A DNA stretch of 64,000 nucleotides, taken from assembly GCA_944392965.1 (NCBI GenBank), contig CALXYM010000004.1, positions 1-64,000 of the forward strand, in the 5' to 3' direction. Made by a program: the position numbers and the translations under genes. The DNA is from an uncultured Spirochaetaceae bacterium (lineage in GTDB: Bacteria; Spirochaetota; Spirochaetia; Sphaerochaetales; Sphaerochaetaceae). The notes beneath the pieces are model-generated. The model was not told the origin of the DNA and searched no databases. It saw nothing but the letters and a program-made list of their open reading frames with translations. Positions 6,158 to 62,516 of this stretch are shown here, piece after piece (positions within the stretch are counted from its first letter, which is position 1; each line of letters starts with the position of its first letter).

Positions 6158-6187
6158 TGAAATAGTAACAGGAAGAGCAGGAGATGT

Positions 6188-6276
6188 GTTTGGGAACTGT
6201 GTTAGTATCGATATATCTCAAACGAGGAAGCGGAAGAGCTGTTCAAGAATGGTGTTTGGGAACTGTGTTAGTATCG
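6188..6276 (+). CRISPR. Relic type II CRISPR array (one full and one partial repeat)
   Basis: A 36-bp repeat at 6188-6223 starts GTTTGGGAACTG and ends ATATATCTCAAAC, with imperfect terminal inverted symmetry. It is followed by a spacer of exactly 30 bp (6224-6253) and a second copy that matches for 23 nt (6254-6276) and then stops. Length, ends and 30-bp spacing fit type II arrays. A TCAAAC at 6152-6157 lies exactly 30 nt upstream and may be the end of an eroded third repeat. No cas genes or tracrRNA were seen nearby. Confidence 0.75.
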
Positions 6277-6324
6277 CCTCAAGCAGGCTCAATGCTTCCT
6301 GTTCGCTCATACATTCCTCTGCAA

Positions 6325-6352
6325 TAAAAAACCGTCCTGTTAAAAGACGGCT
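6325..6352 (-). terminator. Intrinsic terminator downstream of relBE
   Basis: Minus-strand hairpin CCGTC - TTTTAACAG - GACGG followed by six T residues, just after the relE remnant. Orientation fits termination of the relB-relE transcript. Confidence 0.75.
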
Positions 6353-6372
6353 GTCAATCATAGTTATTTATA

Positions 6373-6635
6373 CTACTTCTTCTTGTAAATCTCTCTTCTA
6401 TGTCCGATGTTCAGGACTTCTATTATCAACTCGTTATCCATTATGTTGCATATGATCCTGACATCATCAACCCTGTAACGCCATAAGCCCCTCAGGTCAC
6501 CATGCAGGACGTGCCCTCTGCTTCTCGGGCGTCCAGTTCCGATACTTCATCCATGTATTTACGGATGTTCCTCTGGATTGTCTTGTTGAGCTTTGATAGC
6601 TGTTTCTCCGCTGTTACTGAATATCTGATTACCAT
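6373..6635 (-). pseudogene. relE: RelE/ParE-type toxin with frameshift
   Basis: The start overlaps the relB stop (TAATG). Frame 1 reads MVIRYSVTAEKQLSKLNKTI and continues to SELD, then runs off to a stop at 6494. From the same point the next frame gives the typical RelE second half: PRSRGHVLHGDLRGLWRYR, then VDDVRIICNIMDNELIIEV and IGHRREIYKKK. The break is at about 6525-6533 (GGACGCCCGAG) and equals loss of one base; total length is 263 nt instead of 264. As written, the mRNA interferase would not be made, although the antitoxin is intact. Confidence 0.82.
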
Positions 6636-6892
6636 TATATGCCGAGGCGTTTATACACTTCGTCGGAAGAGTACGTCACAGCCTTGCCCTCCTTGAGCTT
6701 ATCATCCTCTTTGGAGGCCATTCTTATGTCTTCCGCATCCTCAAGTGCATCAGCGTTCGGCATTCCCTTGTTCATCACTACGGCATCAAGGAAAATGCTT
6801 ATAGCATCAGTCATGCTCAAACCATAATCTCTCAGATACTTCTTAGCTAAGTTTTTTTTCTTTTCATCATAGTTGAAACTTACTCTACACAT
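6635..6892 (-). CDS. relB: RelB/DinJ family antitoxin
   Basis: 85-residue antitoxin. The N-terminal half carries a ribbon-helix-helix DNA-binding fold with the DinJ-like segment AKKYLRDYGLSMTDAISIFLDAVVMNKGMP; the charged C-terminal half would wrap the toxin. AGGAG is 9 nt upstream of the ATG. A promoter (TTGACG-N18-TAATAT) lies just upstream and would be autorepressed in a working module. A run of seven G in the leader (6913-6907) is notable. Its toxin partner is frameshifted. Confidence 0.88.
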   Translation of the reverse strand: MCRVSFNYDEKKKNLAKKYLRDYGLSMTDAISIFLDAVVMNKGMPNADALEDAEDIRMASKEDDKLKEGKAVTYSSDEVYKRLGI

Positions 6893-6922
6893 ATCGGTGT
6901 CTCCTACCCCCCCTACATTTAA

Positions 6923-6952
6923 ATATTATTTACAGATAATGCTTTACGTCAA
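6923..6952 (-). promoter_or_regulatory. relBE promoter
   Basis: Minus strand: TTGACG (6952-6947), 18-nt spacer, TAATAT (6928-6923), about 30 nt upstream of relB. Good match to sigma70 consensus. Confidence 0.6.
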
Positions 6953-7382
6953 GTTATACAGCTTCCCTTATCTTCTCCTCCATTTCTACCTCCAATAAGT
7001 TAATTTCTTAAGTCTCAAAATCAGCCGTTCAGTCGGGCTGATATCCAATTTACTCAACATATAATGAGTACTTTTACAAATGCGTATTAAGACATGAATT
7101 GAACATCTTCTTCGTATAAGCTCGGAATCGACCTATCTTTCATCTGATCTCTGGATCAAGATTGCGTGTACTGCCCAAAGAAGTTAAAAGAGAATGTTTG
7201 CCGGCTGATACATGACAGACTCCATTCAATAGGATTAAAGATTAATTGAGTGCCTCCAGTTGTGTTGTTTAAGCGGCTTTTCTCGCCTTGTATGCGTTGA
7301 GTAATTCAACAGATGTATTATTACCTCTGAGAGCTTTTCTATAGCGTTATCAAGTTTCATGCATGTTGAAACTATTATCTCA
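6953..7382. other. Gene-poor spacer with decayed sequence
   Basis: No intact gene. On the minus strand a short frame (about 7345-7274) ends YRKALRGNNTSVELLNAY then KARKAA and a stop; it looks like the end of a lost gene, but I cannot identify it. A short CAGCC/GGCTG hairpin occurs near 7030. The stretch separates the relBE promoter from the second CRISPR relic. Confidence 0.5.
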
Positions 7383-7460
7383 GTTTGAGAGCTGTGTTAG
7401 TATCGATATATCTCAAACTGATTCTTTTGATGTTATAAGGGGCAAGTGTTTAGGAACTGT
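7383..7460 (+). CRISPR. Second relic type II CRISPR unit
   Basis: A 36-bp repeat at 7383-7418 starts GTTTGAGAGCTGTG and ends ATCTCAAAC, with clean terminal inverted repeats GTTTGAGA/TCTCAAAC. It differs from the copy at 6188 at only two positions (6 and 9). A 29-bp spacer (7419-7447) separates it from a degenerate copy that keeps only GTTTAGGAACTGT (7448-7460). The repeat resembles the Treponema denticola type II repeat as I remember it. Confidence 0.75.
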
Positions 7461-7540
7461 ACAATTAACTTCTATTTACTTTGACCTCGTCATAGTAGAT
7501 AGATTTTTTATTTATATGAGATTGTTTTACATTTTCTTAT

Positions 7541-61271: not shown

Positions 61272-61334
61272 ATAATCTTTTATCGAAAAAAGCCGAGAAG
61301 GCTCTATTCCTCTATAGGATGGAGATGAATCGTA

Positions 61335-61480
61335 TGATATAATGCAATCAAGCTGCTTGCAGGGCAGTGGAACGCATATGTACTCCGTAGGAGCTGATGT
61401 AAGACTTGAGCAGGGAATCTTCTGAACAAGCAGTCGGTGTTGAAACAGGAAGCCCTTTCCTCTTAAGCAAGGGCAGTTCA
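61335..61480 (+). ncRNA. Orphan TnpB omega-RNA-like element
   Basis: A minute frame (61342-61425) ends GTHMYSVGADVRLEQGIF and a stop, like the C-terminus of IS605-family TnpB. It is followed by GTTGAAACAGGAAGCCC, a GCCCTT/AAGGGC hairpin (61452-61457 with 61469-61474) and GTTCA (61476-61480), the layout of an IS605-type right end and the 3' scaffold of a TnpB guide RNA as I remember it. The tnpB body is absent. An extended -10 (TGATATAAT, 61335-61343) sits at the start. The guide would be read from 61481 onward, just upstream of galE. Confidence 0.6.
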
Positions 61481-61526
61481 TTTTCAACTTAAGCGGTGTA
61501 AAATTGTCTGAGAAGGAGACGACGTA

Positions 61527-62516
61527 ATGAAAGTATTACTCTTTGGAGGAGCCGGATATATCGGCACACATGTGGCTCTTTCCTTCCTTGATAGGGGGGA
61601 TGAGGTCGGTATCTATGATAACCTCTCTACGGGACTTGAGAGCAATGTAAGCCCTAAAGCGAAATTCTACCTCGGAGATATCCTTGACAGAAACCGTGTA
61701 AGGGAAGTCCTCTCCGAAGGATGGGATGTAGCCGTGCACCTCGCAGCTTTCAAAGCGGCTGGAGAGTCAATGGTGAAACCTGAGAAATACAGTGAAAATA
61801 ACATCACAGGTTCCCTGATCCTCATCACAGAGTGTATAAACGCGGGATGCAAGAACTTCATCCTCTCTTCATCTGCGGCGACATACGGAGAACCTCAGTA
61901 TCTGCCGATCGATGAGAAGCATCCGACGAATCCAGAGAATTACTATGGTTATACAAAACTCTGCATAGAAGAAAACCTGAAATGGTATTCAAAACTGAAA
62001 GGTCTCAACTATGCAGCACTGCGCTACTTCAATGCTGCCGGTTATGATACCGAAGGAAGAATGCTGGGCTTGGAAAGGAATCCTGCAAACCTCATTCCTG
62101 TCGTAATGGAAGCAGCATGTGGAATGAGGCCAAACGTCCTTATCTTCGGTAACGACTACCCCACCGATGATGGAACGGGTGTAAGGGACTATGTTCATGT
62201 GACGGACCTTGCGGATGCCCATGTGAAAGCTGCTGATTACATCTGTACAAATAACAAGAACCTCGTTGTCAATCTCGGAAGTGAGAAAGGTCTGTCAGTA
62301 ATGCAGATAGTAGAGGCGGCAAGGAGAATCACGGGAAGAGAGATTCCTGCAATCATAAGTCCCAGGAGACCGGGAGATCCAGCAAAACTCGTTGCGACAT
62401 CATCATATGCGAAAAAGGAGATAGGATGGAGTGCGAAATACAGTGACCTGGATACCATCATAAGCTCCACATGGAAAGTTTATGAGGCAAACATAAAGGA
62501 AAAAAGAGGGAAATAA
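61527..62516 (+). CDS. galE: UDP-glucose 4-epimerase
   Basis: 329 residues; SDR-family enzyme interconverting UDP-glucose and UDP-galactose. NAD site FGGAGYIGTHVA at the start, catalytic SSSAATYGEP and YYGYTKLCIE (Tyr-x-x-x-Lys), and NYAALRYFNAAG. Slightly shorter than E. coli GalE. AAGGAG precedes the ATG. Ends in a terminator. Confidence 0.94.
   Translation: MKVLLFGGAGYIGTHVALSFLDRGDEVGIYDNLSTGLESNVSPKAKFYLGDILDRNRVREVLSEGWDVAVHLAAFKAAGESMVKPEKYSENNITGSLILITECINAGCKNFILSSSAATYGEPQYLPIDEKHPTNPENYYGYTKLCIEENLKWYSKLKGLNYAALRYFNAAGYDTEGRMLGLERNPANLIPVVMEAACGMRPNVLIFGNDYPTDDGTGVRDYVHVTDLADAHVKAADYICTNNKNLVVNLGSEKGLSVMQIVEAARRITGREIPAIISPRRPGDPAKLVATSSYAKKEIGWSAKYSDLDTIISSTWKVYEANIKEKRGK

What the first reader, a model, noticed from the sequence alone, without database searches (positions are those of the whole stretch)
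61335..61520. Solo omega-RNA-like end of an IS605-type element upstream of galE
The last 18 codons of a TnpB-like C-terminus, the AGGAAGCCC-hairpin-GTTCA scaffold and an extended -10 box are kept, but tnpB is gone. A guide taken from 61481 onward would be transcribed from this short unit. It could be a relic, or a stand-alone guide used by a TnpB or a TnpB-derived repressor encoded elsewhere. Together with the CRISPR relics it is the second RNA-guided nuclease footprint in the window.
Basis: partly seen in the sequence, partly recalled or inferred. Interest (0 to 1): 0.72.

Follow-up and report, generated by a model that had tools for sequence, protein, structure and literature searches.

The report
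Decayed miniature IS605 guide-RNA transposon
The stretch before galE is a worn-out copy of a roughly 200-base mobile element that lost its nuclease gene; other copies of this element family in gut spirochaetes keep an intact guide-RNA-like fold, so the family looks like a set of mobile guide-RNA genes, but this copy is most likely a dead relic.

Summary
It is the right part of a complete two-ended miniature element at 61284-61481 (198 bp), not a lone end: TTTAT target, left-end hairpin, extended -10 box, tnpB 3' remnant, omega-RNA-like scaffold, right-end hairpin ending GTTCA(C). The genome holds five other complete copies and four contig-end fragments; related species hold more. Excising one copy (contig C13) at TTTAT|C...GTTCAC| restores a 442-codon ATPase frame. 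None of 29 relatives' pmm-galE loci carries the element, so this insertion is lineage-specific. The solo copies form one clade (support 100/98), sister to full-length elements with a 450-aa TnpB. As a family they keep a covarying omega-RNA fold after losing tnpB: 98% of pairs formed, 3 broken pairs against about 21 expected. The window copy does not: a 19-bp gap removes arms of two hairpins, the core TCCGG/CCGGA stem is broken, and it folds no better than shuffled sequence. Best reading: a decayed non-autonomous IS200/IS605 element (PATE/MITE type) whose intact siblings may supply guide RNAs to TnpB in trans. A working stand-alone guide at galE is unlikely.

The parts
61279..61283 (+). Target pentamer TTTAT (left cleavage site / TAM), flanking DNA
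   Evidence: TTTAT precedes nearly all copies; excision at TTTAT|C in the C13 copy restores an open frame
61284..61335 (+). Left end (LE) of the miniature element, with hairpin 61302-61324 (CTCTATTC/GGATGGAG) and flanking GATGAATCG
   Evidence: Aligned with LE of solo copies and of full-length tnpB elements L012-L014, L038
61335..61343 (+). Extended -10 box TGATATAAT; similar boxes in the solo copies; tnpB promoter brought next to the scaffold (inferred)
   Evidence: Sequence; solo alignments. No -35/-10 pair found by the consensus scan
61344..61474 (+). Decayed omega-RNA-like scaffold; 19-bp gap at about 61367 removes the 3' arm of hairpin A and the 5' arm of hairpin B; core stem TCCGG/CCGGA broken (TCCGT 61384-61388 / CAGGA)
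61410..61466 (+). Last 18 codons plus stop of the tnpB remnant (AGNLLNKQSVLKQEALSS*)
   Evidence: Sequence; matches C-terminus of the 450-aa TnpB of L038
61452..61481 (+). Right end (RE): hairpin GCCCTT(61452-61457)/AAGGGC(61469-61474), then AGTTCA and the degenerate terminal base (C in most copies, T here)
   Evidence: right border from exact excision in the C13 copy
61482..61501 (+). Flanking DNA that would be the guide if the scaffold worked
   Evidence: Only its own locus plus one 3-mismatch, TAM-less site in the genome; none in viral contigs
61497..61504 (+). Native galE extended -10 (TGTAAAAT), left downstream of the insertion
   Evidence: Aligns with TG-TAGAAT-type boxes upstream of galE in relatives without the element
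61527..62516 (+). galE-like epimerase downstream
   Evidence: Pfam PF01370, E 2.9e-46

Best explanation
61284-61481 is a decayed copy of a non-autonomous miniature IS200/IS605-type element (PATE/MITE kind), derived by internal deletion from a tnpB-only element of the 450/444-aa TnpB clade. Intact members consist of a left-end hairpin, the tnpB extended -10 promoter fused directly to the omega-RNA scaffold, and a right-end hairpin; the guide is whatever DNA lies next to the right end. Shown: family membership, both ends, precise target-site-specific insertion without target duplication, single origin of the solo family, retained RNA fold in the siblings, loss of that fold in the window copy, absence of the insertion in relatives. 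Inferred: single-strand mobilisation in trans by a Y1 TnpA (two intact tnpA genes are in the genome), and use of intact sibling RNAs by TnpB in trans to cut the empty site and so favour retention. The window copy probably makes no working guide RNA; its likely effects are to displace the upstream part of the galE promoter and perhaps to add its own -10 box.
For: Multi-copy family in the same genome: five other complete copies 96-98% identical to each other, window copy about 80%. Excision of the C13 copy at TTTAT|C...GTTCAC| restores a 442-codon DUF4143-like ATPase frame. Empty pmm-galE sites in relatives, e.g. GATAATCTTTTATCTTTTTACC in G050. LE and 3' parts match full-length tnpB elements L012-L014 and L038/L039. 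Solo clade 100/98, sister to the 450-aa TnpB elements. Fold: 93% of cells paired and 17 of 29 pairs with two-sided changes over 12 sequences, slid controls 29-41% paired; solos alone 98% paired, 3 broken pairs against about 21 simulated. Window copy: z +0.55 versus -1.6 to -3.4 in the five sibling solos folded; hairpin B 2/8 pairs, core stem 3/6. Y1 tnpA genes at C9 and C6; the C9 element has a similar LE hairpin with GGTGGAGATGAAT.
Against: No tnpA-bearing element with the same ends was found, so the mobilising transposase is not identified. The genome is a fragmented assembly (38 contigs), so the 19-bp gap cannot be checked against reads. No transcript data. The guide and fold arguments assume that the scaffold boundaries match those of studied omega-RNAs.
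Confidence: 0.9

Rival explanations
1. The window copy is a working stand-alone guide RNA: transcribed from its extended -10, it loads a TnpB encoded elsewhere and directs it to a site matching 61482 onward.
For: Extended -10 box intact; RE hairpin and inner helix kept (7/9 and 6/6 pairs); TnpB genes of the related clade intact in the genome.
Against: Two hairpins and the otherwise nearly invariant core stem are broken; fold no better than shuffles; no TAM-flanked second target found in the genome; no hit in viral contigs; absent from relatives.
Confidence: 0.03
2. The element has been co-opted as part of the galE promoter or leader, giving a -10 box and 5' UTR; its RNA-guide role is irrelevant.
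For: Same orientation and directly upstream of galE; TGATATAAT at 61335-61343; the insertion displaces the upstream half of the native promoter while the native TG-TAAAAT box stays. Some other solos also lie just upstream of genes in the same orientation (L036, L049, L056).
Against: Lineage-specific, no sign of conservation; native extended -10 retained; consensus scan finds no promoter pair. Insertion next to TTTAT-rich intergenic DNA would give the same placement.
Confidence: 0.2
3. A chance fragment or an unrelated REP-like repeat that only resembles an IS605 end.
For: Short, non-coding, with hairpins.
Against: E 2.9e-26 model hit, homologous tnpB C-terminus, two ends, exact insertion evidence.
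Confidence: 0.01

Closest known systems
PATEs (palindrome-associated transposable elements) of Haloquadratum walsbyi, IS605-derived, transposase-free (PMC3119063)
   Same: Near-terminal palindromes, no target duplication, too short to code for a transposase, some derived from IS605/IS1341 elements by core deletion
   Different: Here the deletion keeps the whole omega-RNA scaffold next to a promoter-like box, and the scaffold fold is conserved within the family; the PATE paper predates omega-RNAs and the passages read do not discuss this
TnpB/omega-RNA of IS200/IS605 elements (ISDra2 type; PMC8612924, PMC10278001, abstracts only)
   Same: Scaffold overlaps the tnpB 3' end and the right end; guide comes from flanking DNA; TAM equals the left target site (established knowledge of the family)
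   Different: No tnpB in the element; window copy's scaffold broken
Stand-alone omega-RNA loci reported for IscB systems (from memory, paper not held)
   Same: Omega-RNA unit without its nuclease gene
   Different: IscB rather than TnpB; here the unit is a two-ended mobile element. Comparison rests on memory only

Membership tests
IS200/IS605 non-autonomous element (PATE/MITE) | Subterminal hairpins at both ends, no long terminal inverted repeats | tested here: met
   LE hairpin 61302-61324, RE hairpin 61452-61474
IS200/IS605 non-autonomous element (PATE/MITE) | Insertion 3' of a fixed short target, no target duplication, precise empty site | tested here: met
   TTTAT before the copies, frame-restoring excision in C13, empty galE sites in relatives; the exact window border is ambiguous by one base
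IS200/IS605 non-autonomous element (PATE/MITE) | Ends related to an autonomous or tnpB-bearing IS605/IS1341 element | tested here: met
   L012-L014, L038, L039
IS200/IS605 non-autonomous element (PATE/MITE) | Mobilised by a Y1 TnpA in trans | not testable with these tools
   Y1 genes present and a similar LE hairpin, but no assay
Functional TnpB omega-RNA | Conserved scaffold fold | tested here: not met
   Window copy: hairpin B 2/8 pairs, core stem 3/6, z +0.55. Met by the sibling copies
Functional TnpB omega-RNA | Match to an Rfam family | tested here: not met
   No Rfam match up to E 5 for the window copy or for sibling L003; not a requirement, since most TnpB omega-RNAs may not be in Rfam
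Functional TnpB omega-RNA | Transcription and TnpB binding | not testable with these tools
   No RNA data
TldR-type guide/repressor system | Dead TnpB gene paired with a guide matching a promoter | tested here: inconclusive
   No TAM-flanked target for the window guide; the related TnpB clade has Q at the RuvC-II glutamate position, meaning unknown

The most novel reading that the evidence does not exclude
The intact siblings form a family of mobile guide-RNA genes: miniature elements that lost tnpB once but stay under selection for the omega-RNA fold, so that a TnpB made elsewhere in the cell recognises their RNA, cuts the empty donor site and helps the miniature element persist. The TnpB clade that would serve them has Q in place of the usual RuvC-II glutamate, so it may have a rearranged or inactive catalytic site. 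This concerns the family; the window copy would be a dead member.
Probability: 0.45. Interest if true: 0.65.

Novelty: new variant of a known kind. Interest (0 to 1): 0.4.

Why it matters
Non-autonomous IS605 elements are usually regarded as bare ends. A single-origin miniature family that keeps a covarying guide-RNA scaffold beside a promoter box long after losing its nuclease gene would show that the guide RNA itself is worth keeping for a parasite of a parasite, and it gives a natural system for testing whether TnpB acts in trans to retain elements. For the window itself, the result closes the question: most likely a relic, not an active second RNA-guided system at galE.

Tried and rejected
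Rfam at gathering and relaxed thresholds: no match. Plasmid, phage and viral-contig searches for the element: none. Guide target in own genome and viruses: no plausible target. Promoter/terminator scan: nothing. Two key papers (DOIs 10.1038/s41586-023-06597-1 and 10.1126/science.abj6856) are not held. The idea that the solos are independent recent deletions of different parents, which would explain the fold without selection, was rejected by the single clade, with the caveat that this alignment was made with a model built from solos. The chance-resemblance reading was rejected.

Full report
What is there. Comparison with other copies shows that the thing is larger: a left end with its own hairpin begins at 61284 right after TTTAT, so 61284-61481 is a complete two-ended miniature element of 198 bp.

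It is one of a family. A search of the window's own genome (a 2.43 Mb assembly in 38 contigs) with the segment found ten matches, and with an intact copy eleven: five other complete copies (contigs C2 twice, C5, C6, C13), the window copy, four pieces at contig ends, and the left end of a full-length element on C31. The five other complete copies are 96-98% identical to each other; the window copy is 79-82% identical to them and closest (87%) to the copy of species G038. Of 139 genomes of the family searched, 14 gave matches; named records with the element are uncultured Spirochaetaceae/Spirochaetales metagenome assemblies. With a covariance model of the solos, 31 of 48 genomes of the genus have the scaffold, most of the lower-scoring matches being ends of tnpB genes.

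It moved as IS200/IS605 elements do. In contig C13 a copy interrupts an ATPase gene; removing 214 bp between TTTAT and CCTGAACC, that is C...GTTCAC, restores one 442-codon frame. This fixes the borders: target TTTAT, right terminus GTTCAC, no target duplication. In the window the terminal C is a T at 61481, so a guide would begin at 61482. In 29 relatives' pmm-galE loci there is no element; the closest show the uninterrupted site (G050: GATAATCTTTTATCTTTTTACCTTTCATTGTAGAAT). The insertion is therefore specific to this lineage. It lies upstream of the native galE extended -10 (TGTAAAAT, 61497-61504), which is retained.

Parent. Full-length elements carry a 444-aa TnpB in this genome (L012, L013, L014) and a 450-aa TnpB in sister species (L038, L039); Pfam PF01385 and PF07282 hit L013 and L038 above cut-off. 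The left end and the tnpB 3' end of the miniature element match theirs. In a tree of 42 scaffolds the 13 solos are one clade, 100/98, sister to a group including the 450-aa TnpB elements. A check of upstream DNA confirmed TnpB coding sequence next to nearly all rows labelled full-length; L101 and L053 had too little upstream DNA to tell and L120 had none. The alignment behind the tree was fitted to a model made from solos, which may help the solos to group.

RNA fold. Over five solos and seven full-length 3' ends, RNAalifold gives a hairpin, a long-range TCCGG/CCGGA stem, an inner helix and the right-end hairpin. 93% of cells pair and 17 of 29 pairs show two-sided changes; sliding the partners drops pairing to 29-41%. 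In solos alone, with an additional 5' hairpin, 98% of cells pair; against a simple simulation that scatters the same number of substitutions at random over paired positions, 3 pairs are broken where about 21 are expected. That simulation takes one solo as the ancestor and is rough. The five sibling solos folded have z-scores of -2.6, -3.4, -3.1, -3.3 and -1.6. So after losing tnpB the solo family as a whole kept the scaffold.

The window copy did not. It lacks 19 bp present in the other copies, which takes the 3' arm of the first hairpin and the 5' arm of the second; hairpin B keeps 2 of 8 pairs, the core stem 3 of 6, and the fold energy is no better than shuffled sequence (z +0.55). Its would-be guide has no second TAM-flanked target in the genome: one site with 3 mismatches is preceded by ATCCC, not TTTAT. 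No viral contig holds it.

How it most likely works. Shown: origin, borders, insertion, fold in siblings, decay here. Inferred: mobilisation by a Y1 TnpA acting in trans. The genome has two intact Y1 genes, and the element at C9 has a left-end hairpin followed by GATGAAT like that of the miniature elements, but no tnpA-bearing element with the same ends was found. Also inferred: intact siblings are transcribed from the extended -10 and their RNA is used by TnpB in trans. The related TnpB clade reads IQDENI or IQDDNI where canonical TnpB reads IEDLNV, so whether it cuts DNA is open; published work, recalled from memory, describes TnpB clades with rearranged catalytic sites.

Comparison. The closest described kind is the PATE, a transposase-free IS605 derivative with near-terminal palindromes, no target duplication, and documented origin by core deletion of a tnpB element (PMC3119063). 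This element meets those features. The retained guide-RNA scaffold in the siblings is the variant part. For the window copy the ordinary verdict holds: most likely a relic.

Noticed in passing
L005:1233-1465 (-), next to the solo copy at G000 C5:86138: A group II intron (RF02005, E 2.4e-33) lies directly next to the right end of a solo copy (...GGGTAGTT followed by GTGCGCC), suggesting insertion at the RE hairpin.
   Followed up: partly
L013, L038, L127, L130 (TnpB proteins): This TnpB clade has Q at the position of the RuvC-II catalytic glutamate (IQDENI versus IEDLNV), while the RuvC-I and RuvC-III aspartates are present.
   Followed up: partly
window 6186-7470: CRISPR-like relic: repeat of the type GTTTGAGAGCTGTGTTAGTATCGATATATCTCAAAC near 7382 and degenerate copies at 6186, 6252 and 7446.
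   Followed up: no
L036 (G038) and L040 (G045): In two species a solo element lies directly upstream of what looks like the same CBS-domain gene, hinting at an old shared insertion; the G045 copy is shortened.
   Followed up: no
L061, L014: Some insertions lie in the T-run just after a terminator-like hairpin, which supplies a TTTAT target.
   Followed up: no
L059 (G067 C13): A solo copy with an internal duplication of part of the scaffold.
   Followed up: no
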